Position numbers and translations under genes: made by a program
The notes under the pieces: model-generated
Told to the model about the DNA's origin: nothing
What the model saw: the letters and a program-made list of their open reading frames with translations, nothing else
The model's database searches: none
NCBI GenBank assembly: GCA_040218145.1
Contig: JAVJQK010000039.1
Coordinates: forward strand, 1-64,000
DNA: 64,000 bases
Origin: Sandaracinaceae bacterium
GTDB taxonomy: Bacteria; Myxococcota_A; Polyangia; Polyangiales; Sandaracinaceae
Direction of reading: 5' to 3'
Shown here: positions 5,078-58,613 of the stretch, piece after piece
How the letters are laid out: each line of letters starts with the position of its first letter
Position numbering within the stretch: position 1 is the stretch's first letter

Positions 5078-5452
5078 ATGGCGATGCCAGACGTCTGCCA
5101 AGTTCCCGCGCCGCCGGGGCCGCCGGTACCGACGCCGTTTCCGAACGTCGCCATGCTCAACCAGGCTGACGGCTCGACCTGCTCGGATCGGGTGCGCATC
5201 GGTGGCCGAAAGACATGCACGGTTCAAACCGAAGTCTCACGCACGAGCGGTGACGAGGCGGGGACGGCCAAAGGCGTGATGAGCGGAACGAACATGGACA
5301 AGGCCGTCTTTCGCTCGGGCGTCAGCAGCGTGAAGGTGGAGGGGCATGACATCGTCACGCACCTCAAGCCGACTGCGCACAACGGGTCGAACGCCAACGC
5401 GCCGATGGGTACGCAGGCGGCACCGAGCCAGACGACCGTGATCGTGGGATGA
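5078..5452 (+). CDS. PAAR-like DUF4150 spike-tip protein (T6SS)
   Basis: A 124-aa protein opening MAMPDVCQVPAPPGP, the usual N-terminus of DUF4150/PAAR-like proteins, followed by PFPNVAMLNQ and repeated Cys/Gly/Val beta strands. PAAR-like proteins cap the VgrG spike and carry effectors. I start at the ATG at 5078 because a very strong GGAGGAGGG precedes it; an ATG at 5042 in frame has nothing comparable. The last codons overlap the next gene (ATGA). Presence directly before DUF2169, DUF3540 and vgrG genes supports the call. Confidence 0.85.
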   Translation: MAMPDVCQVPAPPGPPVPTPFPNVAMLNQADGSTCSDRVRIGGRKTCTVQTEVSRTSGDEAGTAKGVMSGTNMDKAVFRSGVSSVKVEGHDIVTHLKPTAHNGSNANAPMGTQAAPSQTTVIVG

Positions 5453-7788
5453 AGCTCGTCCGCGACACGCCGCTGTCAGTCGGTTGGCAGGTGTGGTCGT
5501 TCTCGGCCGAGCAGCGTCGAGTGATCGTCACGGTGAAGGCGACCCTCGAACTGACTCGGGAGGGCCTCTGCACGCTGGCCGACGAGCAGGCGCCGGTGAC
5601 GGGCGACCTGTTCTGGGACGACGACGTGGACCGGACGCTCCGGTACGCGTCGGACCTCGTGCCGGTGAAGCCGCGCGGTGAACTCCTGGTCAGCGGCACG
5701 CTTCGCTCACCGGAGCCGGTCCGGGAACTGTCGTGCCGCGCGCGCGTCGGAGACGTGGAGACGCGCTTCAGCGTGGTCGGCGACCGCTGGTGGCGGTCGG
5801 ATGGCGGCGTGACCGCGCCACAGCCCTTCACGGCGATGGAGCTTTGCTGGGAGCGCTGCTTCGGGGGCCCAGGTCTGTCGGGCAACCCCGTCGGCCGCGG
5901 CGTCGCGCCCGACGCGTACGACGTCGAGGGCCGCGTCGCGCTGCCAAACATCGAGCGCGCGGGCCGGCTCATCCGTTCGGCGTCCGAGCGCCCGGAGCCC
6001 GCGGGGGCGTGGCCCATCCCGCCGAGCTGGCCAGCGCGCGCTCGTCTGATGGGCGCCTACGATCGAGCGTACGCGCGACAGCGGTGGCCGTACCTCGCGG
6101 AGGACTTCGCTTGGCGTTTCTTCCAGGCGGCGCCGCCAGCGCTCCAGCGTGAGGGCTACTGGCGGGGAGACGAGCCGATTGAACTCTCGAACCTCCACCC
6201 CATCCATCCCCTTCTGCGTTGCCAGCTGCCTGCGATCAAGCCGCGAGCCTTCCTGCACGATGCGGAGCGATCCGGTGGCCCGCTGCGCGAGGTGGGCCTG
6301 GTGCTCGACACAATCGCGATCGATGTCGGTGAGGGCAGGGCGTTCGCCGTCTGGCGCGGCAGCGCGCCGTGCGTGACCGAGTCGCTCGAGGAGATCGAGC
6401 ACCTGTACGTCACGCACGAGCCGCTCGATCAGGCGCGGAGCGAGGCCGAGTACTGGGAGGCGTTCGTGGCGCGCCTGCGCGCGCTCTGGGAGGAAGAGCA
6501 GGCGTTCGCGGCCGAGCCGCGACCCGAGCCGGCTCCGCCGGCTGCCGAGCCGTCGAAGGTTGAGTCGCTACCGGGAGCGCCGCCGAGCGCGGCGGAGCTG
6601 CATGCGGAGCGGCGCCGTGAAGCGCTCGAGGCGGGGTGGCCGGAGCCGATCGTCGATCAGCTCTATCCGAGCGAGGTGCCGGAACGGTCCGGCCTCGACG
6701 TCGGAGCGGTGAGGGCGCAGCTCGAGGAAGCGCTCCGAGCGGCCGAAGGGCTCGGCTCCCCGCACGTCGCCGAGTCGCTGAGGCGGATGCTCGAGGAGCA
6801 CGACACGCCGCCCCTCGAGCAGCCGTCTCCTTCGGGACCGACGGCGGAGCCGCCGCCGGACCTCTGGACCGCGCAGGAGAAGCGCGACCTGGCGCGCCGC
6901 CGGCTCGGCCAGGGCCAGGCGCTGGCGGGGCTCGACCTCTCGGGCGGCGATCTGACCCTGCTCGACCTGTCGGGTCAGGACCTCCGCGGCGCGCTCTTGA
7001 TGGGCGCGGACCTCCGCAACACGAGCCTCATCGGCGCGAACATCGCCGGCGCCAACCTCGACGGGGCCAACCTCGAGGGAGCGACCCTGGAGCGTGCGGT
7101 GCTCCGCGGAGCGAGCCTCGCGCTGGTGGAAGCATCGGGTGTGAGCTTCCGAGGGGCCGACCTAGAGGAGGCGGTCTTCGAACGCGCGATGCTGCCCGGC
7201 GCTGACTTCTCGGGAGTCAATGCGATCGGCGTGACCATCGAGGAGTGCCTCGCGACGCAAGCGATCTTCGAGGGGGCGGTGCTCGAGGAGGCCGAGATGG
7301 CGCGCAGCAACTTCGACGAGGCCAACTTCCGCGGCGCGTCGATGACCGACGCGCGGATCGAGGGGGCGAGCCTGCGCAACGCGTGCCTCGATCAGATCGG
7401 CGCGCAGGGGCTGCGCGCCTCGGACGGCGCGGACCTGTCGGAGGCGCGGCTGCGCTGGGCGAAGCTGTCGGGGGCGTCGTTCTCCGAGAGCACGCTGATC
7501 GGCGCGAAGCTGACCGAGTCGGACCTGACCCGGGCGAGCTTCGCCAAGGCGCGGATGGAGGGCGCGGAGCTGCTCGCGGTTCAGGCGCGCGGCGCGAGCT
7601 TCGCCGAGGCGCGGATGAGCGCCAGCTCTCTCGCCGGGGCCGACCTGCTCGGGGCGCGCTTCGAGGGGGCCGAGCTGCGGCTCGCCGACCTGAGCGGCGC
7701 GAACCTTTTCCAGGCCGAGGTCTGGCGCGCGGAGCTTTCGGACGTCCGCCTCGACGGCGCGAACATCGAAGGGACGAAGCTCGCGTGA
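5449..7788 (+). CDS. DUF2169 domain fused to pentapeptide repeats (T6SS accessory)
   Basis: A 779-aa protein. Residues 1 to about 310 match the DUF2169 style (start KLVRDTPLSVGWQVW; GDLFWDDD; RCQLPAIKPRAFL). A charged Pro/Glu linker with a helical segment (about 345-470) follows, then about 300 residues of pentapeptide repeats of A(D/N)LxG type (LDLSGGDLTLLDLSG, then about 50 units). DUF2169 proteins are known from T6SS spike clusters, where they help load PAAR-type tips; pentapeptide arrays form a rigid right-handed beta helix. It overlaps both neighbours by four bases, so it is made together with the PAAR-like protein and the second pentapeptide protein. Confidence 0.88.
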   Translation: MKLVRDTPLSVGWQVWSFSAEQRRVIVTVKATLELTREGLCTLADEQAPVTGDLFWDDDVDRTLRYASDLVPVKPRGELLVSGTLRSPEPVRELSCRARVGDVETRFSVVGDRWWRSDGGVTAPQPFTAMELCWERCFGGPGLSGNPVGRGVAPDAYDVEGRVALPNIERAGRLIRSASERPEPAGAWPIPPSWPARARLMGAYDRAYARQRWPYLAEDFAWRFFQAAPPALQREGYWRGDEPIELSNLHPIHPLLRCQLPAIKPRAFLHDAERSGGPLREVGLVLDTIAIDVGEGRAFAVWRGSAPCVTESLEEIEHLYVTHEPLDQARSEAEYWEAFVARLRALWEEEQAFAAEPRPEPAPPAAEPSKVESLPGAPPSAAELHAERRREALEAGWPEPIVDQLYPSEVPERSGLDVGAVRAQLEEALRAAEGLGSPHVAESLRRMLEEHDTPPLEQPSPSGPTAEPPPDLWTAQEKRDLARRRLGQGQALAGLDLSGGDLTLLDLSGQDLRGALLMGADLRNTSLIGANIAGANLDGANLEGATLERAVLRGASLALVEASGVSFRGADLEEAVFERAMLPGADFSGVNAIGVTIEECLATQAIFEGAVLEEAEMARSNFDEANFRGASMTDARIEGASLRNACLDQIGAQGLRASDGADLSEARLRWAKLSGASFSESTLIGAKLTESDLTRASFAKARMEGAELLAVQARGASFAEARMSASSLAGADLLGARFEGAELRLADLSGANLFQAEVWRAELSDVRLDGANIEGTKLA

Positions 7789-9836
7789 CGGTGGACGGCG
7801 CCGATCTGACCGAGCTGTCGAGCCGCGCCGCGGTGGAGGCGCGCCTACGCGCGTCCGAGCGCCGCGGCGGTGGACCGAGCCTGCGTGACGTGCTCGTCCG
7901 CGGGGTGGACTTCGAGGGGCTGTCGATCCGGGCGGCCGTGCTCTCGCGCGTGCAGCTGGTCCGCTGCCGGCTCGCCGGCGTCGATCTGACCGGTGTGGTC
8001 CTGCGTAACGTCGTGATCCGGGGCTGTGATCTGTCCGGCGCGTCGTTCGAGGGCGCCCGCCTCGACTCGGGCGTGCTGCGGTTCGAGGACGAGGGCGAGG
8101 GCGACGAGGCGACTGATTGCGCGGGGACCCGCTTCGCGGGCGCGTCGTTCGAGAGCGCGATCTTCGATGGGGTGAGCCTCGCGCGCGCGGACTTCACGGG
8201 CGCGTCGCTCGAGAACGCGCGGTGGACGGGATGCGCACTGAGCGAGGCGCGCTTCACCGGAGCGACCCTCGACCTCGCGTCGTTCGAGCGCTGCGAGCTG
8301 CGGGGGGCGTCGCTCGACGACGTGTCGCTGTCCATGGTCACGCTCGGATCCTGTGACGCGACCGGCGCTCGCTTCGAGCGGGCGCGGCTCGACGGCGCGA
8401 GCCTCGGCGGGTCGCGTTTCTCGGAGGCGTCGATGGCGGGCGCGACGCTCTCGGGCGTCCGCTTCGATGCGGTCGAGGCGATGCCCCGGGCCCTGGCGGG
8501 CGCGGACCTGAGCAGAGCGATCCTCGCGGGCCGCGCGATGGTGGGGGCGGACCTGCGCGAAGCGATCCTGGACGGCGCCGACCTGCTCGGCGCGCGGCTC
8601 GCGGGCGCTGACCTGACCGCCGCCAGCCTCCGCGGCGTGCGCCTCGAGAGCGCCGACCTGACCGATGCCCGCCTCGACGGCTGCGAGCTTGCGAACTCGC
8701 GCGTGGTCAAGGCGTCGCTCCGCGGCGCATCGCTCGTCGAGGCGCGAGGGCAGGGTGTCGATCTGTCGGAGGCGGATCTGCGCGGCGCGGATCTGCGCGG
8801 CGCGCGTTTTTCGGGCTCGTTTAGGGAGGCGCGCTTCGGCGCGGCCGTGCTCGACGGCGCGCGATTCGACGGGAGCAGCCTCCGCGGCGTCGAGATCGAG
8901 GAGGGCGCCGCGTGGGTCGAGGTCGGCCTCGCGGGCGTCGACCTCGCGGTGACCGACCTGTCCGGCGTGCGGTTCGAGCGGTGCGATCTTCGCGCCGCGA
9001 ACCTCGCGCGCGCCCGCCTCCGCGGCGCGCGCCTCGACGAGTGCGACCTGTCGGCGGCGCGGCTCGCCGAGGCCGACCTCGCCGGCGCCGACCTGTCCGA
9101 GTCGATCCTCAGCGAGGCGGACCTGTCCGACGCGACCCTCGCGGGTGCGCGCCTGGACTACGCCGACCTCCGGGGGGCGACGCTGGCCGCTGCCGACCTG
9201 TCTGGGGCGAGCCTGTTCCGAGCCGACCTCCAGGCGCTGGATCTCCGGCAGGTGAAAGTCTCGGCGGAGACCTCGTTCGAGTCGGCGACGATGCGGAGCG
9301 CGGATCTGAGCGGCGTCGTCTTCCGAGGCTGCGTGCTCGAGAGCGCCGAGCTCACGGGCGCGCTGCTCGCGGGCGCGGCGCTCGACGAGGTGCGGGGCAA
9401 GCAGCTCGAGCTGACCTCGACCGATCTGACGGGCGCGTCGTGGCTCCGCGCCGACCTGCGCGCGGCCGACTTCACGGACGCGGCGATGGAGGACGCGGAC
9501 CTGCGCGGTGCAGACCTCCGGGGCGCGCAGATGCGGGGAGGGGCCGCGCGCCGCGCACGCTTCGAGCTCTGCGCGATGAGCCGGTGCCAACTCGTCGGGG
9601 TCGACCTGCGGGAGACCCGCTTCGATCACGCCGACCTCCGCTACAGCTGGATCGAGGGCTGCCACCTCGGCGCGGCGAGCTTCCGGGACGCGGATCTGAG
9701 CGGCAGCAGTCTGGTGGGCTCGACCGAGCAGGGGACGGATTTCGCCGGGGCCGAGCAACGGGACGTCACTCGGGTCGATGAGGCGAAGGCGAGGGCGGAG
9801 GCGTTCGAGCCGCCGCGGCGAGGGCCGGCGGCGTGA
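7785..9836 (+). CDS. Large pentapeptide-repeat protein (T6SS cluster)
   Basis: A 683-aa protein, almost all pentapeptide repeats (units such as ADLRG, ARLDG, ASLRG), starting at a GTG overlapping the previous TGA. A few non-repeat insertions interrupt the coil (for example around VLRFEDEGEGDEATD and KVSAETSFESA). The frame is also open upstream of the GTG, but that part is antisense-like noise inside the DUF2169 gene. No signal peptide or catalytic motif is visible. It is likely a structural or cargo-presenting beta-helix for the spike, or itself a toxin-like DNA mimic; I cannot decide between these. Confidence 0.85.
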   Translation: MTVDGADLTELSSRAAVEARLRASERRGGGPSLRDVLVRGVDFEGLSIRAAVLSRVQLVRCRLAGVDLTGVVLRNVVIRGCDLSGASFEGARLDSGVLRFEDEGEGDEATDCAGTRFAGASFESAIFDGVSLARADFTGASLENARWTGCALSEARFTGATLDLASFERCELRGASLDDVSLSMVTLGSCDATGARFERARLDGASLGGSRFSEASMAGATLSGVRFDAVEAMPRALAGADLSRAILAGRAMVGADLREAILDGADLLGARLAGADLTAASLRGVRLESADLTDARLDGCELANSRVVKASLRGASLVEARGQGVDLSEADLRGADLRGARFSGSFREARFGAAVLDGARFDGSSLRGVEIEEGAAWVEVGLAGVDLAVTDLSGVRFERCDLRAANLARARLRGARLDECDLSAARLAEADLAGADLSESILSEADLSDATLAGARLDYADLRGATLAAADLSGASLFRADLQALDLRQVKVSAETSFESATMRSADLSGVVFRGCVLESAELTGALLAGAALDEVRGKQLELTSTDLTGASWLRADLRAADFTDAAMEDADLRGADLRGAQMRGGAARRARFELCAMSRCQLVGVDLRETRFDHADLRYSWIEGCHLGAASFRDADLSGSSLVGSTEQGTDFAGAEQRDVTRVDEAKARAEAFEPPRRGPAA

Positions 9837-10513
9837 GTCAGGAGAAGCAAGTGGGTAGAGACTTGATGACCGATGAGCTGCGGCGGGCGCTCGAGGGCGG
9901 CGCGCGAGCCGACTCGAGCGCGGGCGCCGTCACGCGCTACGAGGTGCCGAGCGGCGTGGCGATCGAGGAGGACGTCGACGAGCAAGGGGAGGCTCGCGTC
10001 GCGCTCCGCGCGCCCGGCGGCGGCGTGCTGCTCGAGCTCCGGCCGAGCGACGGACGGTGCCGGATCCACGCGCCGTCGATCGAGATCGCCGCCTCGAACG
10101 AGCTGCGGCTGTCGGGCCGCAGCGTCCGCGTGGAGGCCGAGCGCAGCCTCGTGATGCGCGCGGGCGACACGGCCATCTCGGCGCAGCCCCGCCACCTCGG
10201 CCTGCTCGCCGAAGAGATAACAGCCACGAGCCAGCAGACGAACTGGACCACGAAGGGCTTCCGCTTGGTCGGGGACGTCGTGGAGACGAGGGCGCGGCGG
10301 CTCGTCCAGCGGGCCGAGGAGATGGAGAGCCGCGCCCGGCTGCTCGTCGAGAAGACGTGGCAGAGCCTGCGCGAGGCCGAGGACCTCGCGCAGACGAAGG
10401 CGCAGCGGGTGCGGCTCGTGGCCGAGGACACGCTCCGCGCGTTCGGCCGCCGAACGCTGTTGAAGGCGCGTGAGGACATGAAGCTGCGCGGCGAGCGCAT
10501 CTACCTCGATTGA
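9833..10513 (+). CDS. DUF3540-type T6SS accessory protein
   Basis: A 226-aa protein starting GTG within the previous stop. The central part (GGVLLELRPSDGRCRIHAP, then SIEIAASNELRLSGRSVRVE) is a beta-strand ladder like that of VgrG shafts, and the C-terminal 100 residues are a long charged helix (VVETRARRLVQRAEEMESRA) ending KLRGERIYLD, as in DUF3540 proteins. DUF3540 genes are found beside DUF2169 and vgrG in T6SS clusters; the exact role (spike assembly or effector loading) is not settled. The next ATG is 15 bases downstream, behind AGGAAGG. Confidence 0.8.
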   Translation: MSQEKQVGRDLMTDELRRALEGGARADSSAGAVTRYEVPSGVAIEEDVDEQGEARVALRAPGGGVLLELRPSDGRCRIHAPSIEIAASNELRLSGRSVRVEAERSLVMRAGDTAISAQPRHLGLLAEEITATSQQTNWTTKGFRLVGDVVETRARRLVQRAEEMESRARLLVEKTWQSLREAEDLAQTKAQRVRLVAEDTLRAFGRRTLLKAREDMKLRGERIYLD

Positions 10514-10527
10514 GGAAGGGACGGGCG

Positions 10528-12411
10528 ATGAGCAACGACAGCGAGCGGCCGGAGGTGCCCGAGCACGCCGACCCCGAAGACACCCTCGGCGAGGTAGCCG
10601 AGCAGGTCGGACAAGGGCTCGACGGCGCGGCGGAGCAGATCCCCGAAGAAGAAGAGGAGGCGCGCGCGGCGATGGAGACGGCGGGCGACGTCGCCAGCGC
10701 GGTCTCGAACGTCGTGAAGGCCGCCCAGGCGGCCGAGCAGCTCGGCCAGGCGCTCGAGGCGGGCGACGAGGGGAGGGCGGCCAGCGCGGTCGGGAACCTC
10801 GCCGGAGGCGTGCTCGGGACGACCGGGGCGCTCGTCGACGGCGTGGCCGGCGCGATCCCCGAGGAGGCGCGCGAGGGCGTCAACACCGCCGCGTCGGTGC
10901 TCCGCGGCGCGGCGGCCGTGAGCCGATCGACCGAGCGCGTCGTCAGCACCTACCAATCGATCGAGCGGGCGGTCAGCGGCCGGCGGTTGTCGTTTCACAC
11001 CCGGGCGGACGTCGGAGCCCGGCTCCTCGCGGAGCGCGCCTCGGGCACGCAGCGCCTCAGCGGACTGTACCAGTGGCGCGTCTTGGTCGAGGTCGAGCAC
11101 GAGGGAGGGTTGGACGATGAGGCTTTGAATGACCTGCTCCGCCAGCCCGCGCGCATCAGCCTCAACCGGGACGACAGCGAGGGAGAGGTGTACGGCGTGC
11201 TGCGCCAGGTGGAGATGCTCGAGGTCACGGGGCCGCGCGAGACGCACTATGACCTGACGCTCGTCCCCAAGCTCTGGCGCCTGAACCTCGTGAAGCGCTC
11301 CCGTGTGTTTCAGAACAAGACGCACGTGGAGGTAGCGCTCGCAGTGTTCGCGGAGCATGGCTTCGACCCGGACACCTACGTCTTCGACCAGACTGAGGAG
11401 TCGTACCCGACCCACGAGTACGTCGTGCAGCACAGAGAGACGGACTTCGCGTTCATCTCTCGCCTGCTGGAGCACAACGGGGTCCACTATCGCTTCGAGC
11501 AGCACCCTCGCACCGAGGCCATCGTGCTCGGAGACCGAAACGCGTCTTTCGTGCCGGTTCACGAGGAGGACGAGCTGCGCTATCACCCGCACGACTTTGC
11601 GCCTGACGACGGCGCCCCACGGGTCTGGGGCCTGCGGCGCATCCGCTCGGCGCGCTACGCGGAGGTTCAACTCCGCGACTACAACTGGCGCGCGCCTCAT
11701 CAGCCGGTGCGGGCGGTCGAGCCCGTGGACGAGGAGACGGGGTACGGCTTCCTCGACTTGTATGGAGAGCACGTGCCCGACACTGCCGAGGCGACGAGGC
11801 TCGCGCGAGTCCGCGCGCAGGAGCAGCAGGTGGCGGCGGAGACCTTCGAGGCCAAGACCTCGCTCCGCGGCGTACGCCCCGGCACCTACTTCGACCTCGT
11901 GAACCACCCCCACCCGGACCTGAACCAGCGCTACCTCGTCACCGAGACCTCGGAGACGACCGTCGATGGGCACGCCTACGTGAACACCTTCAAGGCGATC
12001 CCGTTCTCGGTGACCTACCGGCCTGCGCGAACGACGCCGTGGCCGCGCATCGACGGCGCCATCAACGCCATCGTGGATGGCGAGGCGCGGAGCACCGCGA
12101 CGCCGATCGACGAGCAGGGGCGCTACCGAGTCGTCCTGCCTTTCGATGGCGCCGCTAGCGCGGGCGGGAGTGCCTCGAGGTGGGTGCGGCGAGCTCAGCC
12201 GTCGGCAGGGGAGGGTTATGGCATGCACTTCCCGCTGCACATCGGCTCCGAGGTCGCCATCGTTCACGTCAACGGCGATCCGGACAGGCCTTTGATCGTT
12301 GGCGCGGTGCCGAACGCGGCGACCCAGAGTCCGGTCATTGCCGGCAACGCACCACAGAGCCGCATCCGCACCGGGAGTGGCGTGGTCTTCGAACTCGACG
12401 ACGATTGCTGA
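10528..12411 (+). CDS. vgrG: VgrG spike protein with N-terminal helical extension
   Basis: A 627-aa protein with ATG after AGGAAGGGACGGGCG. Residues about 153-560 form the gp27-like VgrG body (RRLSFHTRADVGARLL; TYVFDQTEESYPTHEYVVQH; ETDFAFISRLLEHNGVHYRF) and the gp5-like OB fold (GRYRVVLPFD; GMHFPLHIGSEVAIVHVNGD; DRPLIVGAVPN). Two things are odd. Residues 1-150 are an extra Ala/Glu-rich helical region not usual in VgrG. The protein also stops right after the OB fold (SRIRTGSGVVFELDDDC), without the long beta-needle. A needle-like protein is encoded by the next gene, 13 bases downstream. VgrG trimers form the tip of the T6SS tube. Confidence 0.93.
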   Translation: MSNDSERPEVPEHADPEDTLGEVAEQVGQGLDGAAEQIPEEEEEARAAMETAGDVASAVSNVVKAAQAAEQLGQALEAGDEGRAASAVGNLAGGVLGTTGALVDGVAGAIPEEAREGVNTAASVLRGAAAVSRSTERVVSTYQSIERAVSGRRLSFHTRADVGARLLAERASGTQRLSGLYQWRVLVEVEHEGGLDDEALNDLLRQPARISLNRDDSEGEVYGVLRQVEMLEVTGPRETHYDLTLVPKLWRLNLVKRSRVFQNKTHVEVALAVFAEHGFDPDTYVFDQTEESYPTHEYVVQHRETDFAFISRLLEHNGVHYRFEQHPRTEAIVLGDRNASFVPVHEEDELRYHPHDFAPDDGAPRVWGLRRIRSARYAEVQLRDYNWRAPHQPVRAVEPVDEETGYGFLDLYGEHVPDTAEATRLARVRAQEQQVAAETFEAKTSLRGVRPGTYFDLVNHPHPDLNQRYLVTETSETTVDGHAYVNTFKAIPFSVTYRPARTTPWPRIDGAINAIVDGEARSTATPIDEQGRYRVVLPFDGAASAGGSASRWVRRAQPSAGEGYGMHFPLHIGSEVAIVHVNGDPDRPLIVGAVPNAATQSPVIAGNAPQSRIRTGSGVVFELDDDC

Positions 12412-12424
12412 GGAGGGACGCGAG

Positions 12425-13804
12425 ATGACACAGACCGACCAGGAGCAGGACGCCGAGCTCGCCGACCACCAGCATCGCCTCGAACGCCTCGAGCAGGTCT
12501 TCCCGACGCCGGAGACGCCCCGCGGCGGCGCGCAACGGGCCCGGCTGCATGTACCAACTCCCGACTCGTTGTTGACGGTCGGCGCGGCCGGGCACGCAAC
12601 CTCCGAAGGGAGGGCCGAGGGCCCTGGCGGCGTCGCGCTCCATACGGTCGAGAACCTCGGAGCTCAGATTCAGGGTTCGACGATCCTCGACACGGACGGC
12701 AACACCATCCTGCACACCGGCGAGGAGGCGCGCGTCCTCGCTGAGGCCGACGCGGCGATCAGCTCGAACGCCAACGTCAAGGTCGGCAGCATCGAGGATG
12801 TGGAGATCACCGCTGGGGGCGCGGGCTTCAGGGATCCGGCGTTCACGGTGCGTCCCGCGATGGCCGTGCCCTCTCCGCCCGAGGTGAACACGGCTCGAAC
12901 CCGAGACAGCATCGGGGCCGTCAAGAACGCATGGACCTACACGTGGAAGGCATGGAGCATCAAGTCCGCGCTCAGCTCGTGGCTGGACTTCATGGCGAGC
13001 CCGACCGAGGGGGTGCAGGAAGCGAGCACCGAACGGAACACGGCCCGGGTCCTGGGCTTCGTCCGCTCCTCGATGACGCTCGGTGAGGGGCTGTGGGGGA
13101 CCCTCACGGCGCTCGCTGGTGCCTTCGAGGATCCGAGCGCCCTCGACCACACGGACTCAGGACCTCAGATGAAGCTCCACGCTGTTGGCGGGATGACGCT
13201 CTCGAGCAGCGGCAAGATCTCTGCGTTCTCGGAAGACAGCGTCAGTATAGGTGCGCCCATCAACCTCAGTCTCAAGGCCGGTTCGAGTGCGTCGATGAGC
13301 GCGGGCGGCAACTCCAAGGTCTTCGGCATCGCGAGTGCCACGCTCCAGAGCGATGGCGTGGTCGGCATCAAGGGGAAAGTGGTCGGTACCGGCGGCGACT
13401 ATATCGAGATGAAGGCCAAACAGGGCGCCTTCCTCAAGTCCGAGGGGGCGGCGCTGGTGGAGGCCAAGGGAAAGGTCGCGCTCGACGGCGATCAGGTCGC
13501 AGTGGCCGGGAACACCGTAGACGTCGGCGGGAAGGACCGCGTAGAGGTGTCGGCGAAGGTGGGCCTCGTCGATATCAAGGGGGAGCAGCGCGTGCGGGTG
13601 CAATCCCCAAATGACGTCATCGTTCAGGGCGACCGCTCGGTACAGCTGCGACAGGGAAGGGCGACCCTCGCGATCGACAATGATCAAATCGAGCTGCGTT
13701 CCGGATCGACGACAGCTATCTTGACCTCGAGCGAGTTCTCCGTGCATCGGGTGCGGATTCGAAGTGGTGAGACGACCATTCGAGGTCGCGTGAACCTCGG
13801 CTGA
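12425..13804 (+). CDS. VgrG shaft/needle-like beta-strand protein
   Basis: A 459-aa protein with a strong GAGGAGGGACGCGAG before the ATG. It has a short N-terminal coiled coil (DHQHRLERLEQVF), a strand segment (TILDTDGNTILHTGEEARVL), a middle helical part with Trp-rich sequence (NAWTYTWKAWSIKSALSSW), and then about 200 residues of short repeating beta strands (GGMTLSSSGKISAFSEDSVS; QRVRVQSPNDVIVQGDRSVQ; IELRSGSTTAILTSSEFS). That tail is the beta-prism type normally found at the C-terminus of VgrG itself. As the preceding VgrG lacks it, the two probably assemble into one spike. No enzyme motif is seen. Confidence 0.8.
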   Translation: MTQTDQEQDAELADHQHRLERLEQVFPTPETPRGGAQRARLHVPTPDSLLTVGAAGHATSEGRAEGPGGVALHTVENLGAQIQGSTILDTDGNTILHTGEEARVLAEADAAISSNANVKVGSIEDVEITAGGAGFRDPAFTVRPAMAVPSPPEVNTARTRDSIGAVKNAWTYTWKAWSIKSALSSWLDFMASPTEGVQEASTERNTARVLGFVRSSMTLGEGLWGTLTALAGAFEDPSALDHTDSGPQMKLHAVGGMTLSSSGKISAFSEDSVSIGAPINLSLKAGSSASMSAGGNSKVFGIASATLQSDGVVGIKGKVVGTGGDYIEMKAKQGAFLKSEGAALVEAKGKVALDGDQVAVAGNTVDVGGKDRVEVSAKVGLVDIKGEQRVRVQSPNDVIVQGDRSVQLRQGRATLAIDNDQIELRSGSTTAILTSSEFSVHRVRIRSGETTIRGRVNLG

Positions 13805-21974: not shown

Positions 21975-22460
21975 GTGGACAACGAGACGTCATGGGGGCG
22001 GGCGGAGATCGTCGATCTCGCCAGCGAAAGGATCCGGCGGAGGCTCTCGACGCTGCGCAGCGTCGAGCTGTGGGCGGAGCAAGCGGCCGAGGAGTCGGCG
22101 GTGGCGCCCATGGGTCGCGGCTGCGTCGAGGCGGCCTCCCTCGCCCTCGCGCGTGTCGAGGGCAGCCAGAGCGCATACACGGAGGTGGCCGCGAGGATGG
22201 CGGCGTACCAGCGGGCAGTCGCCGGCTACGAGCCGGACGTGCGCGTCATCCTCGCTGCCGAGCGGGCGTGGTGCGAGGCCGAGCGAGACGCGTCGCGCAC
22301 GGCCGTTCGGCTCGTGGATGGCGAGGAGAGTGACCACGCGCTCGGCCGCGCCGCGGGCTTCGACGTGGTCGCGAGGCGAATCGGCGGCCTGCTCGAGCGG
22401 CACATCGTCAGTCCCACGACGTCCGCCGCGTCCGTGCCGGCGTGGAGAGCCTGGCAATGA
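21975..22460 (+). CDS. Hypothetical helical protein, first gene of WGR/dsRBD group
   Basis: A 161-aa protein starting GTG (DNETSWGRAEIVDL) with GAGGG about 5 bases upstream. It is almost wholly helical and Ala/Arg/Glu-rich (VELWAEQAAEESAVAPMG; RVILAAERAWCEAERDA), without signal or membrane helix. Its TGA overlaps the ATG of the WGR gene, so the two are coupled. No family recognised. Confidence 0.65.
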   Translation: MDNETSWGRAEIVDLASERIRRRLSTLRSVELWAEQAAEESAVAPMGRGCVEAASLALARVEGSQSAYTEVAARMAAYQRAVAGYEPDVRVILAAERAWCEAERDASRTAVRLVDGEESDHALGRAAGFDVVARRIGGLLERHIVSPTTSAASVPAWRAWQ

Positions 22461-22849
22461 GCGAGCTGACGATCCTCTTGAGCATCGACCCGGCACAGAA
22501 TCGATTTCGGTTCTTCGCCATCGTGCTGCGCCGACTGCCGGACGGCGGCGCCGAGCTGCACCGCCGTTGGGGGCGGCTCGGCACCGAGGGGCGCCACGAG
22601 GTGGAGAGCTTCTCGACGGCCCGCCTCGCGGAGGCTGCCCGAGCAGACCTCATCGCCCGTCGTCGTCGACGCGGGTATGAACTCGCGCGCTCGCTCCCGG
22701 TCTCGGGGGAAAGCGACTTCGCCGCGCTCACGGCGTGGGAGGTGGGCCTCGCACTCGCGCTCGAGTCCATGCGTCGCGGCCTCACTGCGCGGCGGGAGGA
22801 GGCTCGCGCCGCGTTTGACTCACGGGCGCAGCTTTTGCTCCCGATCTGA
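22457..22849 (+). CDS. WGR-domain protein
   Basis: A 130-aa protein whose ATG overlaps the previous stop (ATGA). Residues about 12-75 form a WGR domain: NRFRFFAIVLRRLPDG, the signature RRWGRLGTEG (WGR at 38-40), and the helix AARADLIARRRRRGYE. WGR domains bind nucleic-acid ends in PARPs and bacterial proteins. The remaining about 50 residues are helical (AWEVGLALALESMRRGL). Stand-alone small WGR proteins are common in bacteria, with poorly known roles. Confidence 0.85.
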   Translation: MSELTILLSIDPAQNRFRFFAIVLRRLPDGGAELHRRWGRLGTEGRHEVESFSTARLAEAARADLIARRRRRGYELARSLPVSGESDFAALTAWEVGLALALESMRRGLTARREEARAAFDSRAQLLLPI

Positions 22850-22937: not shown

Positions 22938-23114
22938 ATGGTCGCGACCGACAACGAAGCTCCACCACCTGACTTCGACGACGACGAGACTCCGCCGCTC
23001 CCGCACCGTCGCAAGCGGAGCACGCACTCGGGTGTCGGTGTCGTTGCGAAGGAGATCCCCCCGCCCCCCAACCCCCGCGACCCGCGTCGGGAGAACGCAG
23101 ACGGGGAAGGGTGA
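22938..23114 (+). CDS. Small acidic/proline-rich protein coupled to dsRBD gene
   Basis: A 58-aa protein (VATDNEAPPPDFDDDETPPL at the start), likely disordered, with a basic patch (HRRKRS) in the middle. Its TGA overlaps the GTG of the next gene, which supports real translation. The 88 bases between the WGR gene and this ATG hold nothing I can name. Confidence 0.45.
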   Translation: MVATDNEAPPPDFDDDETPPLPHRRKRSTHSGVGVVAKEIPPPPNPRDPRRENADGEG

Positions 23115-23986
23115 ACGACCTCGAGGAGGAGCTGAGGTCTGACAACCCCAAGGGCCGGCTCTGGGAGGCGTGCGCCGCGCGGCGCATCGTGCCGCCGACA
23201 TGCCGACACGCGACGCTGGGCGCACGCCACCGGGTGGAGATGGAGATGGTGGTTGGCGAGTGGGAGCTGTCGAGCGGGGTGCATTGGGGGTGGTCACGCA
23301 AGATGGCCGAGCAGCTCGCGTCTCGCGCCCTGCTCGGGGAGTTGGAGGCGCTCGGGCAGGACGAGCCTGCGGCGCGGCCCCCGCCAACGCACGCGGGGTG
23401 TGTCGAGCAGGCGCTCGGAGACGAGGACATCTTCGACGTCGACGAGGACGAGGCGGAGCATCTCAGGCGGAGCAATGCGAAGGGCCAGGTGTACGAGTGG
23501 TGCCAGCGGCAGAAGCCCCCCGTGCGTCGCCCGCGCTTCACGGCGCACCCGGCGGGCGGGGCGGTGCTGGTGCGTGCGCGTCTCGACGCGCGCGCTCTCG
23601 AGACGCCGTGGTTCCGGGCAGCTCGGCGCAAGGAGGCTGAGCACGCTGCGGCCGAGGCGCTCCTGCAGCTGTTGCCCGAGTCGGACGATGCGCCGGATCT
23701 AGATGTGGGGGCGACGGCGAACCCGCGCACGCTGCTCAACGAGCTCGTGCAGCACGGTGAGCTCGCCGGATGCCGGGTCGACGTCACGGGTCGCTCCGGT
23801 CCAGACCACGCGCCGCGCTTCGCGGCCGAAGGCCACGCGCGCTTTCCGGACGGGACCGAGGTGAGAACTGCGTCGCACGAGGGGGCGAGCAAGCGCGAGG
23901 CGATCGGCGCCGCGTCGCGTGCCCTGCTTGTTCACGTGCTCGCTCATGCAGGGAGGCTCGAGCCTCTTCATCGCGTGGCTTTGTGA
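23111..23986 (+). CDS. Protein with three tandem double-stranded-RNA-binding-like domains
   Basis: A 291-aa protein; the GTG overlaps the previous TGA and follows GGGGAAGG. Domain 3 (about 203-278) is a convincing dsRBD: NPRTLLNELVQHG, DHAPRFAAEG, then SHEGASKREAIGAASRALL, the alpha-beta-beta-beta-alpha order with the SKREA basic helix start. Domain 1 (about 11-79: NPKGRLWEACAARR, GWSRKMAEQLASRALLGEL) and domain 2 (about 120-188: NAKGQVYEWCQRQ, ARRKEAEHAAAEALLQLL) repeat this pattern more loosely. No RNase III or other catalytic domain is attached. Bacterial dsRBDs usually occur once, in RNase III, so an all-dsRBD protein is unusual. Predicted cytosolic dsRNA or structured-RNA binding. Confidence 0.75.
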   Translation: MNDLEEELRSDNPKGRLWEACAARRIVPPTCRHATLGARHRVEMEMVVGEWELSSGVHWGWSRKMAEQLASRALLGELEALGQDEPAARPPPTHAGCVEQALGDEDIFDVDEDEAEHLRRSNAKGQVYEWCQRQKPPVRRPRFTAHPAGGAVLVRARLDARALETPWFRAARRKEAEHAAAEALLQLLPESDDAPDLDVGATANPRTLLNELVQHGELAGCRVDVTGRSGPDHAPRFAAEGHARFPDGTEVRTASHEGASKREAIGAASRALLVHVLAHAGRLEPLHRVAL

Positions 23987-51011: not shown

Positions 51012-52390
51012 GGATCTCCTGACGAAGCCGTAGGTGGTCGAGGCACCTGAAGAAGGGAGCGCGCACACCTCGCGGGCCTCAGGGTTGGGTTGTCGAGACC
51101 TAGCCAGGAGGTTGCGAGGGATGCGCCATGCGAGAGTGATGTGCCGAACGCTCGGAGTCGAGGGAGCCGTGCTCGACGGCGTGGGCTGGGAGGCCGACGG
51201 CGCCACTTCGTGGCGCGGGTGCGGCCGACGAAGGCGGAATCCAGTCGATGCGCCGAGTGTGGTCGTCGGTGCCCGCGCTGGGGGGCTGGTGAAGGTCGGC
51301 GGCGGTGGCGCACGGTCAGCTTCGGCCTCGCGCGGGCGTACATCGGGGCAGAGGCGCCACGCGTGCGGTGTCCCTGGCACGGCGTTCATGTTCAGCGTGT
51401 CCCGTGGGCGCGGGCCCAGTCCAAGTTCACCCGCGTGTTCGAGGATCGGCTCGCGTGGCTGGCGGTGCGCACGGACAAGACGACGATTGCCGGTCTGCTG
51501 GGAGTCGCGTGGCGTACTGTGGGCGCAATCCTCGAGCGCGTCGCGGCGAGCATGCGGGAGGCCCGCGACCCGTTCGAGGGCGTCACCCGCATCGGCATCG
51601 ACGAGGTCTCTTACCGGAAGGGACACCGCTACCTCACGGTCGTCGTCGACCACGACTCGGGCCGACTCTTGTGGGCGCACCAGGGCCACGACGAGAAGAC
51701 GCTGCGGACGTTCTTCGACAAGCTCGGGGCGGAGCGGTCGGCGCGCATTCGCTTGGTCAGCGCAGACGGTGCCGCGTGGATCCACAACGTCGTGGCGGAG
51801 CGCTGCCCCAACGCCACGCTCTGCCTCGACCCGTTTCACATCGTGCAGTGGGCGACGCGAGCTCTGGATGAAGTCCGCCGCTCGGTCTGGAACGAGTTGC
51901 GGCGCGCCGGTCAGAAGGAACGAGCGAAGGCGCTCAAGGGGGCGCGCTGGGCCCTCTGGAAGAACCCCGAGGGCCTCACCAGTAGACAGCGGACCAAGCT
52001 GGCTGAGATCGAGCACGACAACAAGAAACTCTTCCGTGCCTATCTGCTCAAGGAGCATCTCCGCGAGGTCTTCAAACTCACCGCGAATCCCACGTACGCC
52101 AAAGAGTGCCTCGAACGCTGGCTCCACTGGGCCACCCACTCCCGGCTGCCCGCCTTCGTGAAAGTCGCCCGCGCGATCCGCCGACATCGTGCCGCGGTCT
52201 ACAGCGTCCTCGAGTTCGGCCTCTCGAACGCGCGCATCGAAGCCGCCAACACCGAACTCCGCCTCATCACTCGGCTCGCCTTCGGCTTCCACTCCCACAA
52301 GCCGTTGATCGCTCTCGCCATGCTCAGGCTCGGCGGTCTCTGTCCCCCGCTCCCGAGCCTCTCCTGACCAACGTCTTCGTCAGGAGAGCC
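51012..52390 (+). mobile_element. ISL3-family insertion sequence with terminal inverted repeats
   Basis: The left end GGATCTCCTGACGAAG, continuing CCGTAGGT, matches the reverse complement of the right end GGCTCTCCTGACGAAG, continuing ACGTTGGT: 24 bases with three mismatches. Between them lies one transposase gene. Length 1379 bp, usual for ISL3. The flanking 8-mers (ctttatca on the left, ggttaaca on the right) do not match, so there is no clear target duplication. The 334-bp repeat copy 2 begins exactly at the base after the right end. Confidence 0.9.
51121..52367 (+). pseudogene. ISL3 transposase, frameshifted near the N-terminus
   Basis: The native N-terminus (MRHARVMCRTLGVEGAVLDG, then VGWEADGAT) reads from ATG 51121. 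Near 51210 the frame shifts, and the rest continues one frame over: ARVRPTKAESSRCAECGRRC (zinc finger), FTRVFEDRLAWLAVRTDKTT, GIDEVSYRKGHRYLTVVVDH (first catalytic Asp), VSADGAAWIHNVVAERCPNA, CLDPFHIVQWA (second Asp) and the final domain with SNARIEAANTELRLITRLAF (Glu). The downstream frame is also open from 51090 with a non-native start. Only this one frameshift is seen; it may be inactive, or rescued by frameshifting. Confidence 0.85.
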
Positions 52391-52725
52391 GGTTAACAGT
52401 ACCCAGCCACTCTGCGCCCGACAAGACGCGAGTCCGGGCGCTCGGACACGTGCTGCGCAACGCCGTCGACCACGGCTTCGAGGCGGGGAGCGGCTCGGGC
52501 GGGGAAAGTCGGCGGCGAGCATCGTACGCGTCACGTCGGTTGCGACGGAGGGCACGTCATCTCAGGTCGCGCCCTCGGCGCGAGAAAGCGGCGACGCCTC
52601 GGCGCTGCGCAGCAGGGACGCCACCGTCCGCCGGAGCGCGCTAGCCGAGACCGGCTTGGCCAGGTAGGCGGCGGCGCCGAGTCGAGTCAGCTCATCGCGG
52701 CGGGTGGGATCCCAGTACCCCGAGA
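52391..52725. repeat. 334-bp direct repeat, copy 2 (mate at 48357)
   Basis: Begins ggttaacagtacccagccac directly after the ISL3 right end and continues into the 3' end of the intact FHA kinase gene. It encloses the stop of that gene and about 54 of its last codons. Copies are 4034 bases apart. Confidence 0.9.
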
Positions 52726-54079
52726 TCACCACCATCAGCGGCGGCTCGGCGAGTCCTCCGAGGGTCTCGACCACGTCACGCCCGGTCAGCCCCGGCATGT
52801 CCAGGTCGAGCAGCAGCAGATCCGGCTTACGCTCCTCCGTCCGATAGATGCGCAGGGCGTGCTCTCCGTCGCGCGCGACGAGTACCTCATAGCCTGCGGC
52901 CCGGAGCAACCGCTCGAGGCTCCGGCGCACCAGTTCCTGATCGTCGGCGATGAGGACTCGCGCGCCCTGGGACGCGGCCATTCGCGAGGCGTTCTTCTTC
53001 TCCGGACTCTTCAGGCAGGCCGGCGGCTCGACCGCCGGGAGCACGATGCGGAATGCCGTGCCTCGGCCGGGCTCGCTGCTCACCTCGACGCAGCCGCCCA
53101 TGCCGCGCACCAGTTCCGCCACCGTCGCGAGCCCGAGCCCGGTGCCGTGCCCGAGCGCCTTGGTGGTGAAGAACGGTTCGAAGGCGTGTTCGAGCGTCTC
53201 GGGCGGCATGCCCACGCCTGTGTCGTTCACCGAGATCACGGCCCGGTCCGCGACCTGGTGGGCGCGCATCACGACCGCACCACCGTCGGGCATCGCGTCG
53301 CGCGCGTTGAGGCAGAGGTTGAGCAGCACCTGATGCAACTCGGTCTGGCTGCCGAAGACGTGTAGCCCGTTCGCCGCCTCCACCTGGATGGGGTGCTCTG
53401 CTCTGAAGGTGCGGAGGCAGAGCCGGGCGACCTCCTCAAGGACCTCGGCCACCCGTACCGCCTCTCGCGGCGTCTCGCCGCGCCGGCCGAGCGTGGCCAG
53501 GGCGTGGGTCAGTTCGACTGCGCGCTCGAGGGCCAGGTCGAGGTCGGTCACGCACTCGCGCGCCTCGGCCGGGAGCGGCCCGAGGATCCCCTCCAGGTGC
53601 TCAAGCGTGGCCTGTGCCGCGCCGACCACGTTGTTGAAGTCGTGGGCGATGCCGGCGGCCATGCGCCCGATTGCCTCCATCTTCTGTCGCTCGCGCAGCT
53701 CGTGCTCGAGCGGATCCTCGCAGGTGAAGAGGAGCGTGATCTGCTGGCCCAGGTCCAAGCGGGTCCCCGGTGCCAGCGGCGCCCGGCTGACCACCATGCC
53801 ATCCAACCAGGTCCCGTTGCGGCTCCCCAGGTCCTCGACCTCACAGGTCCCGTCCGGTAGCTCGACGATGCGCGCGTGCCGCCGGGAGATCGACGCGTCG
53901 AGCACCCGCACGTCGCACTCGGTGGCCCTCCCGATGACCGTCTCGGTGCCCAGCTCGAAGCGGCTCCCGCGGTTGGGTCCCCGCAGCACGACCAGCCGCG
54001 GTCGGCTCGAGGGAGCGCTGGGAGGGGACGTGCGAAAGGCCGGGAACTCGGCGGTGGTCTCGGAGAATGAGTCGCTCAA
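52562..54079 (-). CDS. FHA-domain hybrid histidine kinase with receiver
   Basis: A 505-aa protein with a TTG start (GAGG upstream). FHA (about 27-115: RPRLVVLRGPNRGSRFELGT, VIGRATECDVRV, SISRRHARIV, GSRNGTWLDG), HisKA-like helix with His146 (AAGIAHDFNNVVGA), ATPase domain (VLLNLCLNARDAMPDGG; GHGTGLGLATVAELV) and receiver (VLIADDQELVRRSL; phospho-Asp in LLLLDLDMPGLTG; Lys in YLAKPVS). It is a paralogue of the kinase at 25551, lacking that protein's N-terminal pseudo-receiver. Its 3' end was duplicated at 48357. Confidence 0.92.
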   Translation of the reverse strand: MSDSFSETTAEFPAFRTSPPSAPSSRPRLVVLRGPNRGSRFELGTETVIGRATECDVRVLDASISRRHARIVELPDGTCEVEDLGSRNGTWLDGMVVSRAPLAPGTRLDLGQQITLLFTCEDPLEHELRERQKMEAIGRMAAGIAHDFNNVVGAAQATLEHLEGILGPLPAEARECVTDLDLALERAVELTHALATLGRRGETPREAVRVAEVLEEVARLCLRTFRAEHPIQVEAANGLHVFGSQTELHQVLLNLCLNARDAMPDGGAVVMRAHQVADRAVISVNDTGVGMPPETLEHAFEPFFTTKALGHGTGLGLATVAELVRGMGGCVEVSSEPGRGTAFRIVLPAVEPPACLKSPEKKNASRMAASQGARVLIADDQELVRRSLERLLRAAGYEVLVARDGEHALRIYRTEERKPDLLLLDLDMPGLTGRDVVETLGGLAEPPLMVVISGYWDPTRRDELTRLGAAAYLAKPVSASALRRTVASLLRSAEASPLSRAEGAT

Positions 54080-54277
54080 GGAACCTCAATCCCATCAACG
54101 GCGATCCCACAGCCGTTTGAAGCGGCGTCGGTCTCGCGTCGGGTAGCGCGCGTCAATGTGGTGATCCTCTGCGCGCCGGCTGAGAGATGCCCCATGAAAA
54201 TGTGTCGGCGTCATGTCGGGGAAACCCGCATTACCTTCGGTCGAAGACCGTGGGGCGAAAGTCGTCATCACGTGTCC

Positions 54278-54916
54278 TTCTGGAACCTCGTTCAGGTGCC
54301 CGAGCAGTGGGCTGCCGCACGCGCTCGCGCGTATCAGGAGATGGGGCTGCCGGCCGAGCCCGGGCACGCGCTCGAGCGACTGCGTGACTGAGTTCGACGC
54401 TGCCCTGCACGACTTCCGCGCCGGTCTCCCTGACAACCGCTTCGCAAAGGTCGAGGCGGGCGCTCTGCGACTGTCGAAGCGCGACGCTCCGGGATCGGAC
54501 GGCGCCGGCTCACGTGGTGCTCGACCGGCTCGCCGCCAGCTCGCGTGACGATGCTCGGGCGCGTCGTGAAGACCACCTTCATCCTCCGCTACATCCACGA
54601 CGCCGCGGTGCGGGACCGAATCCACCTCCAGCTCAACCGGGCCGAGTCGCGGCATGCGCTCGCTCGGCGCCTCTTCTTCGCGAACCAGGGTTCGTTCCGG
54701 ACCGGGGACTACGCCGAGATCATGAACAAGGTCAGCGCCCTGAGCGTGCTCTCGAACAGCGTTCTGCTCTGGAACACGAAGCAGCTCGAGCGCGTGGTCG
54801 GCGCGCTCGAGGGCGGCGACAGCAAGCCCGTGGATCGAGATGACCTCGCGCGCATCTCGCCCTTGCTCCACGCCCACGTGATCCCGAGTGGCACGTACCG
54901 GTTCGCCGACGTGTGA
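54278..54916 (+). pseudogene. Tn3-family transposase mosaic remnant, copy 1
   Basis: Three pieces of a Tn3 transposase in different frames. FWNLVQVPEQWAAARARAYQ ends at 54391. CVTEFDAALHDFRAGLPDNR with RFAKVEAGALRLSKRDA follows, and a 27-base deletion relative to copy 2 interrupts the reading. The C-terminal part is then intact (TMLGRVVKTTFILRYIHDAA; NRAESRHALARRLFFANQGS; FRTGDYAEIMNKVSALSVLS; ISPLLHAHVIPSGTYRFADV). The catalytic core is mostly gone. It directly precedes merO/merR, so this is the end of an old Tn3-type mercury transposon. Confidence 0.85.
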
Positions 54917-54926
54917 CGACCGCCCC

Positions 54927-54950
54927 TTGACTCCGTACCTAGGTACGGAG
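54927..54950 (+). promoter_or_regulatory. MerR-type operator/promoter, copy 1
   Basis: TTGACT (-35) overlaps a perfect 20-bp palindrome CTCCGTACCTAGGTACGGAG at 54931-54950; a weak -10 (gcaaac) would lie 19 bases beyond the -35. This is the long-spacer layout of mer promoters, where MerR bends the DNA to activate. The site reads straight into merR, so merR and the uptake genes appear to be one MerR-controlled transcript. Confidence 0.88.
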
Positions 54951-54964
54951 TGCAAACTGAGGGC

Positions 54965-55396
54965 GTGACCGAACCGAGCACGCTGAAGATCGGGGAGCTG
55001 GCGCGCGCCGCTGATGTAGGGGTCGAGACGATTCGGTACTACGAGCGGCGCGGCCTTCTCGCTCAGCCCCCACGACGAACGTCTGGATACCGGCAGTACC
55101 CTCCGGGGGCCGTGCGGCGCGTGCGGTTCATCCGCCGCGCGCAGACCCTGGGCTTCACCCTCAAGGAGATCGAGGAGCTGCTCGCCCTTCGCGTCGACGA
55201 CGACCGCTCGTGCGCAGACGTCCGCGCGCTCGCGCGGGCGAAGCTCGAGGATATCGAGCGGCGCGTGGCCGAGCTGCAGCAGATGGGGCGCGCGCTCGAG
55301 CGGGTCGCTCGCCGGTGTCGCGGGCGCGGCCCCACGAGCGAGTGCCCGATTCTCGAGGTTCTCGACGAAGAGGAGGTGGCCAATGCCGAAGGTTGA
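54965..55396 (+). CDS. merR: MerR mercury-responsive regulator
   Basis: A 143-aa protein from GTG at 54965 (VTEPSTLKIGELARAADVGV); a GTG at 54950 would overlap the operator. Winged HTH (about 6-45: VETIRYYERRGLLAQPPRRT), long dimer helix, and the Hg(II)-binding triad Cys83 (DRSCADV), Cys118 and Cys127 (CRGRGPTSEC) with the spacing of Tn501 MerR. It should sense Hg(II) and activate the downstream genes from merO. The end overlaps the next gene by 14 bases. Confidence 0.93.
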   Translation: MTEPSTLKIGELARAADVGVETIRYYERRGLLAQPPRRTSGYRQYPPGAVRRVRFIRRAQTLGFTLKEIEELLALRVDDDRSCADVRALARAKLEDIERRVAELQQMGRALERVARRCRGRGPTSECPILEVLDEEEVANAEG

Positions 55397-56114
55397 GCTC
55401 ATCTACGACGCGGACTGCCCCAACGTGGCGGCGGCCCGCGAAGCGCTGACGCGCGGCTTCACCGACGCCGGTGTGACGCCGCGCTGGTCCGAGCACCTGT
55501 CGGCCGAGGGGCCGGCGTACGCGCGCGAGCTCGGCTCGCCGACTATCCTCGTCGACGAGAAGGATGTGAGCCCGGGCGCCGAGCCGAGTCCGGAGTCGTG
55601 TTGCCGTCTCTACGAGACGGGCGACGGTCGCCTCGTCGGCGTGCCGGAAGTCGACACGATCGCGCGAGCCATCGTGAACGCCGCTACCCATGATTCTCCC
55701 GACACAGCGGAAGCTTCGCCAGGTTGGCGGTCGAGCCTCGGCGCGCTCCCGGCGATGGGCGCTGCGTTTCTCCCGAAGGTGGCGTGCCCGGCGTGCTGGC
55801 CAGCGTACGCCGGAGTCCTTAGCGCGTTCGGGCTGACCCCTCTCATGCAGACCCGATGGCTGCTCCCGCTGACGGCGAGCTTTCTCGTCCTCGCCGTGGG
55901 CACGCTCGCGTTTCGCGCGCGCCGTCGGCGGGGCTACGGCCCGTTTGGGCTCGGCATCCTCGCCGCTGTCCTCGTGCTGGTCGGCAAGTTCGGGTTCGAC
56001 AACGACTCCGCCATGTACGTCGGCGTCGCGTTCCTCGTCGGCGCGTCGCTCTGGAACGCCTGGCCACGACGAGAGGTTTCCTGTGCCGCCTGTGAACCGG
56101 CGGCAGCGAAGTGA
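55383..56114 (+). CDS. Thioredoxin-like/MerC-type membrane transporter
   Basis: A 243-aa protein starting ATG inside merR's end. Residues 1-100 are a thioredoxin-like module with one Cys in YDADCPN and a CC pair at 73-74 (SPESCCRLY). The rest is a four-helix membrane part with CPAC at 135-138 (PKVACPACWPAYAGVLSAFG), as in MerC/MerT-type Hg(II) uptake proteins, ending with CAAC. The layout suggests uptake and thiol handling of Hg(II) in one protein, an unusual fusion. The start codon is uncertain by a few residues. Confidence 0.75.
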   Translation: MPKVELIYDADCPNVAAAREALTRGFTDAGVTPRWSEHLSAEGPAYARELGSPTILVDEKDVSPGAEPSPESCCRLYETGDGRLVGVPEVDTIARAIVNAATHDSPDTAEASPGWRSSLGALPAMGAAFLPKVACPACWPAYAGVLSAFGLTPLMQTRWLLPLTASFLVLAVGTLAFRARRRRGYGPFGLGILAAVLVLVGKFGFDNDSAMYVGVAFLVGASLWNAWPRREVSCAACEPAAAK

Positions 56115-56130
56115 AGAAGAGGAGAGAATC

Positions 56131-56400
56131 ATGACGACAACGAGAACGATCGAAGTGTTCAGCGCCGGGTGCGCGATCTGCGAGGACACCATCGCGCTGG
56201 TGAACCAGCTCGCGTGCCCCTCGTGCGAGGTGAGCGTGCTGGACACGCGAGAGCCGAACGTGGCGGAGCGCGCCAAGCAGCTCGGTGTGAACGCGCTACC
56301 TGCCGTCGCCATCGACGGTGTGCTCGCCGACTGCTGCAAGAACGGCGGCATCGACGAGGCGTCCCTGCGGGACGCGGGCGTGGGAACGCCAATCACATGA
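56131..56400 (+). CDS. Small thioredoxin-like Cys protein of mer operon
   Basis: An 89-aa protein with a strong AGAGGAGAG before the ATG. Thioredoxin-like fold (TIEVFSAGCAICEDTIALVN; NALPAVAIDGVLADCC) with CAIC and CPSC pairs plus a CC near the end. It is likely a cytosolic thiol carrier accepting metal from the transporter. The gene after it overlaps by 4 bases. Confidence 0.8.
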   Translation: MTTTRTIEVFSAGCAICEDTIALVNQLACPSCEVSVLDTREPNVAERAKQLGVNALPAVAIDGVLADCCKNGGIDEASLRDAGVGTPIT

Positions 56401-57796: not shown

Positions 57797-57934
57797 GAGG
57801 CTCGAGATGACGCCTGGGTCCTGGCCCTGCAACGACTCGAACATGACGGTGTATTGTGGCCGGACGGCCGTCGCCTGCGACCGACCGATCGCGGTCTGGT
57901 TGGCCGCGACGAGTATCCGCGCCATGCTCACCAC

Positions 57935-58570: not shown

Positions 58571-58613
58571 TTCCGCTCACACCGGGTCGACGCGCCCCTG
58601 CGCGGCGGCCAGA

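What the first reader, a model, noticed from the sequence alone, without database searches (positions are those of the whole stretch)
23111..23986. Stand-alone protein with three tandem dsRBD-like domains
Seen: three segments (about residues 11-79, 120-188, 203-278) share the order helix, strands, helix; the last has the clear dsRBD ending SHEGASKREAIGAASRALL. Known: bacterial dsRBDs normally occur once, at the end of RNase III. A protein made only of dsRBD-like domains recalls eukaryotic TRBP/Loqs-type proteins. It may bind structured RNA, for example phage RNA, without cutting it.
Basis: partly seen in the sequence, partly recalled or inferred. Interest (0 to 1): 0.75.

Follow-up and report, generated by a model that had tools for sequence, protein, structure and literature searches.

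The report
Bacterial protein of three dsRNA-binding domains
A myxobacterium carries a protein built only of three double-stranded-RNA-binding domains, a layout familiar from the helper proteins of animal and plant RNA interference, and its nearest relatives are the tail of an RNA-cutting enzyme, so it probably grips folded RNA without cutting it.

Summary
Window 23111-23986 (+) encodes 291 aa with three dsRBDs: Pfam PF00035 hits the whole protein at E 2.9e-11 in three stretches, AlphaFold2 (pLDDT 86.5) gives three helix-strands-helix units, and the best PDB fold matches are TARBP2 and Loquacious, the Dicer partners. No catalytic domain is present. The window protein, and one in G129, are stand-alone versions; no trace of the nuclease half remains on the contig, and the genome holds only a distant stand-alone beta-CASP enzyme. 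Only domain 3 keeps the full canonical RNA-contact set (GPxH loop plus KR). Most likely it is a non-cutting dsRNA-binding adaptor related to the tail of an RNase. Partner, target and phenotype are unknown; a truncated relic is the main rival. New variant of a known kind.

The parts
23111..23986 (+). Gene for the 291-aa stand-alone triple-dsRBD protein (GTG start)
   Evidence: relatives
23147..23335 (+). dsRBD 1 (residues 13-75 by Pfam); short loop GARH, helix-2 start SRKMAEQ
23477..23674 (+). dsRBD 2 (residues 123-188); no GPxH loop, helix-2 start RRKEAEH
   Evidence: HYL1 match Z 9.0 over 118-190
23723..23926 (+). dsRBD 3 (residues 205-272); canonical GPDH loop and helix-2 start SKREAIG
22938..23114 (+). 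Possible small upstream ORF (58 aa, acidic, proline-rich) whose TGA overlaps the GTG start as GTGA; suggests translational coupling, unproven
   Evidence: sequence; no Pfam match; GC3 0.76
22457..22849 (+). Upstream same-strand gene with a WGR domain (neighbour, link not shown)
   Evidence: Pfam WGR E 3.2e-13

Best explanation
The gene encodes a non-catalytic RNA-binding protein of three tandem dsRBDs on flexible linkers. It is homologous to the C-terminal tail of a beta-CASP ribonuclease and most likely arose when that tail was freed from its nuclease. Shown (by computation): the three dsRBD folds, the lack of a nuclease, the homology to the fusion tails. Inferred: domain 3, which keeps the canonical loop and basic helix-2 pair, grips dsRNA or a long hairpin largely without sequence specificity; domains 1 and 2, with altered loops, add avidity or protein contacts; the protein then presents structured RNA to an RNase in trans (the genome's stand-alone beta-CASP enzyme or RNase III) or shields it.
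For: Pfam dsrm three stretches E 2.9e-11; profile of the family finds ADAR, Loquacious, TARBP2, NF90, Staufen and RNase III in the PDB at E 8e-13 to 2e-5; AF2 pLDDT 86.5 with three alpha-beta3-alpha units; Foldseek TARBP2 2.3e-8, Loqs 1.2e-7; VIA-align Z about 9-10 for domains 1 and 3 and Z 9.0 for domain 2 against HYL1. Six relatives carry a metallo-beta-lactamase/beta-CASP nuclease ahead of the dsRBDs in one chain; Pfam names the domains in three of them; their nuclease half matches aCPSF1/CPSF73/INTS11/TTHA0252. Second stand-alone copy in G129. An intact 467-aa beta-CASP enzyme without dsRBD is encoded on G000 contig C35. Basic residues at the start of helix 2 in all three domains.
Against: Domains 1 and 2 lack the full GPxH loop, so RNA binding by them is uncertain. 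Whole-protein pI is 5.98. Genomes with the fusion also carry the separate beta-CASP enzyme, so it is not an obvious special partner. No conserved gene neighbourhood. Not found in the other family members searched nor in the conspecific G183. The tree does not resolve whether stand-alone or fusion came first.
Confidence: 0.5

Rival explanations
1. A truncated relic: the tail of a once-fused beta-CASP RNase left behind after loss of the nuclease half, open by chance and without function.
For: Relatives are mostly fusions; both stand-alone members have the longest branches (3.02 and 4.23); G129's third domain is incomplete; the window gene is missing in the conspecific assembly.
Against: 291 codons open with coding composition; hallmark residues of each domain kept, 31-39% identity to the relatives; the start falls at the domain-1 boundary; no nuclease remnant anywhere on the contig; confident fold of all three domains.
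Confidence: 0.2
2. A dsRNA-sequestering or sensing protein used in defence against phage or mobile elements, or carried by such an element to blunt host RNases.
For: Patchy distribution; region absent from the conspecific assembly; transposon remnants elsewhere on the contig; viral dsRBD proteins are the matches in the viral structure library, as expected for the fold.
Against: No relatives in phages, plasmids or viral contigs; no PADLOC match for it or the neighbours tested, no PHROG match for it; downstream neighbours are signalling genes.
Confidence: 0.15
3. A housekeeping RNA chaperone or ribosome-assembly factor acting alone on rRNA or mRNA hairpins.
For: dsRBDs bind A-form duplex in general (established knowledge); Foldseek also lists mitoribosomal dsRBD-fold proteins.
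Against: Too rare for a housekeeping role: absent in nearly all relatives searched.
Confidence: 0.1

Closest known systems
Beta-CASP RNase + triple dsRBD fusions (L064, L065, L066, L093, L094, L128)
   Same: All three dsRBDs align end to end (31-39% identity), same order, same NPKG-type helix-1 motifs
   Different: The window protein lacks the metallo-beta-lactamase, beta-CASP and RMMBL domains
TRBP, Loquacious and related Dicer-partner dsRBD proteins
   Same: Tandem dsRBDs on flexible linkers, no catalytic domain; best PDB fold matches
   Different: Eukaryotic; in TRBP the first two domains bind RNA and the third binds Dicer (own knowledge), whereas here the third is the canonical RNA-binding one; no Dicer in bacteria
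Bacterial RNase III dsRBD
   Same: Same domain; domains 1 and 3 match an RNase III-only profile above shuffles
   Different: RNase III normally has one dsRBD behind a catalytic domain; here three and no catalytic domain
MTH1203 / aCPSF1 (archaeal beta-CASP RNase with KH domains, PMC3095777)
   Same: Logic of adding RNA-binding domains to a beta-CASP nuclease, as in the fusion relatives
   Different: KH domains at the N terminus instead of dsRBDs at the C terminus; the window protein has no nuclease

Membership tests
dsRBD (PF00035) proteins | Significant match to the dsrm profile | tested here: met
   E 2.9e-11, 44.2 bits against cut-off 23, three stretches
dsRBD (PF00035) proteins | alpha-beta-beta-beta-alpha fold in each domain | tested here: met
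   AF2 model pLDDT 86.5, DSSP; VIA-align matches for each domain
dsRBD (PF00035) proteins | RNA-contact regions: helix-1 Glu, GPxH loop, basic pair at helix 2 | tested here: inconclusive
   All in domain 3; domains 1 and 2 keep the Glu and basic residues but not the full GPxH loop
dsRBD (PF00035) proteins | Binds dsRNA | not testable with these tools
   needs a binding assay
TRBP/Loqs-type RNase III partner proteins | Three dsRBDs and no catalytic domain | tested here: met
TRBP/Loqs-type RNase III partner proteins | Binds and assists an RNase III/Dicer enzyme | not testable with these tools
   own genome has one RNase III-type dsRBD gene over the cut-off; no evidence of contact
TRBP/Loqs-type RNase III partner proteins | Orthology to the eukaryotic family | tested here: not met
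   nearest sequence relatives are bacterial fusion tails; only weak direct hits to eukaryotic proteins
Ribonuclease III | RNase III catalytic domain | tested here: not met
   only the dsRBD end of TIGR02191 matched, 28 bits against 166
Beta-CASP ribonuclease with triple dsRBD | Metallo-beta-lactamase/beta-CASP domains | tested here: not met
   absent from the protein and the contig
Beta-CASP ribonuclease with triple dsRBD | Homologous triple dsRBD tail | tested here: met
   alignment A3; single-sequence hits to the fusions at E 3e-13 to 5e-12 per piece

The most novel reading that the evidence does not exclude
A bacterial counterpart of the Dicer-partner arrangement: a free-standing triple-dsRBD adaptor that feeds structured RNA to a separate beta-CASP or RNase III nuclease, alongside relatives in which adaptor and beta-CASP nuclease are one chain, together defining a dsRNA-processing RNase family not described before in bacteria.
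Probability: 0.25. Interest if true: 0.8.

Novelty: new variant of a known kind. Interest (0 to 1): 0.55.

Why it matters
Stand-alone multi-dsRBD proteins are usually regarded as a eukaryotic and viral speciality. A bacterial one, with relatives fused to CPSF73-like nucleases, would give a simple system in which to ask how dsRNA-binding adaptors are gained, lost and swapped between RNases, and it points to a dsRNA- or hairpin-directed beta-CASP enzyme in myxobacteria that can be tested directly.

Tried and rejected
Frameshifted or detached N-terminal nuclease: searched the window, the contig end and G129's contig for the nuclease half with six queries; best E 0.009 and inconsistent between queries, so none. 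Nuclease half elsewhere in the genome: only a 34%-identical separate enzyme of a kind that the fusion genomes also have. Phage or plasmid origin: no relatives. Defence association: no PADLOC match. The single-sequence scan of genome contigs found nothing; only the alignment query did. Several weak hits are chance frames or RNase III. Herpetosiphon plasmid beta-CASP protein with a long tail: no dsRBD found in it. Literature: no paper found that joins beta-CASP and dsRBD in bacteria, which is weak evidence as the library is partial. My first run of the RNase III control used wrong strands and was redone. A promoter/terminator scan gave nothing useful; no Rfam match in the window.

Full report
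Observation. The ORF at 23111-23986 (+) is real in frame and length (291 aa, GTG start). Its base composition by codon position is that of the neighbouring genes. Pfam gives one family only, dsrm PF00035, at E 2.9e-11 in three stretches; each third alone matches only dsrm, below the curated cut-off. NCBIfam finds mainly the dsRBD end of RNase III, far below cut-off.

Is it more than chance? With a profile made solely from RNase III dsRBDs of 30 related genomes, domains 1 and 3 beat all 5000 shuffles; domain 2 does not as a lone sequence, but the family profiles of all three domains match the RNase III dsRBD profile at 94, 96 and 98% probability, and domains 1 and 2 match each other at 99.5%, which suggests that 1 and 2 are a duplication (inference).

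Structure. With an eight-row alignment AlphaFold2 gives mean pLDDT 86.5; each unit shows helix, strands, helix, with low-confidence linkers at 87-97 and 193-202 (first model pLDDT 77.5). Low pTM (0.41) means the mutual placement of the domains is not determined. Foldseek against the PDB: TARBP2 (7zpk_C, 2.3e-8), Loqs-PB (8dfv_K, 1.2e-7), MLE, R2D2, TRBP, NF90. VIA-align: domain 1 Z about 10, domain 3 Z 9.6 (RNase III 1yyw_C, 74 residues, 1.9 A), domain 2 Z 9.0 (HYL1 3adg, 67 residues, 1.6 A).

Relatives. A search of 184 genomes of the order found clear relatives only in family f12. Reading the loci showed that three of them (L064, L065, L066) are proteins of about 820-890 aa with metallo-beta-lactamase, beta-CASP and RMMBL domains followed by the dsRBDs. 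The alignment-based scan of GTDB contigs and the phylum and class searches added L093 (labelled Planctomycetaceae MAG), L094 (Deltaproteobacteria MAG, evidently G555) and G248. Motifs of active beta-CASP enzymes (HxHxDH, SAHAD, VHGD) are visible in these sequences, and the nuclease halves match aCPSF1, CPSF73, INTS11 and TTHA0252. Apart from the window, one more stand-alone form was found, in G129, with two domains and part of a third. In the class search 6 of 318 genomes carry the module (two further hits, G110 and G111, are RNase III). The other, weaker phylum-level hits (E 1e-13 and up) match mainly the third domain; the one I read, G411, is an RNase III, and the rest were not opened one by one.

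The nuclease half is gone. None of six nuclease queries finds a convincing remnant on the window contig or next to G129's gene. The window genome's best match is a separate 467-aa enzyme on contig C35 at 34% identity, of a kind that the fusion genomes also have. The gene was found in no other member of the window's family, and the conspecific assembly G183 lacks the 3.6 kb around it and shows no near-identical match over the next 19 kb, while matching part of another contig at 99%. G183 is 84% complete, so absence is not proven.

Direction of change. Fusions outnumber stand-alones and are spread wider, which favours the fusion as the older state, but the tree of eight rows has no strongly supported branch and the two stand-alones do not group. 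So I do not claim a proven loss.

RNA-contact residues. Domain 3 has GPDH and SKR, as in RNase III. Domain 1 has a shorter loop (GARH; GAxH/F/Y in several relatives) and RK at helix 2. Domain 2 has no such loop and RRK at helix 2. The helix-1 glutamate is present in all three. Hence domain 3 is the best candidate for dsRNA binding; this is the reverse of TRBP, where the third domain is the protein-binding one (own knowledge).

Mechanism. The best-supported account is a non-cutting binder of structured RNA. That its relatives are fused to an RNase makes a partnership with an RNase in trans the most natural guess (Rosetta-stone reasoning), but no partner is shown. The relic reading remains open until orthologues from closer strains are compared.

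Surroundings. Upstream on the same strand lie a WGR-domain gene and a DUF4236 gene, downstream a response regulator, an FHA-histidine kinase and a Ser/Thr kinase. I saw none of these beside the relatives, so context does not add a function.

Noticed in passing
L064, L065, L066, L093, L094, L128: A beta-CASP ribonuclease fused to three C-terminal dsRBDs, with a stretch of about 100 residues of unassigned fold between; I found no description of this architecture.
   Followed up: partly
L129 7367-8359 (+): RNase III with two tandem C-terminal dsRBDs instead of one (G411).
   Followed up: no
window 5294-13804: Type VI secretion-like cluster: DUF2169 + pentapeptide repeats, a large pentapeptide-repeat protein, a VgrG-like protein (Phage_GPD, Phage_base_V) and a DUF2345 protein.
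   Followed up: partly
window 51435-59524: ISL3 transposase and two Tn3 transposase C-terminal fragments, with MerR-type and heavy-metal-like small genes between.
   Followed up: partly
window 22938-23114: Small acidic proline-rich ORF ending in a GTGA overlap with the triple-dsRBD gene.
   Followed up: partly
window 21500-44000: Region not found at high identity in the conspecific assembly G183, although part of another contig matches at 99%: possibly an accessory region.
   Followed up: partly
L162 2866-5355 (+): Herpetosiphon plasmid beta-CASP protein (Haur_5264, annotated as a beta-lactamase domain protein) with a long C-terminal tail without any Pfam match.
   Followed up: partly
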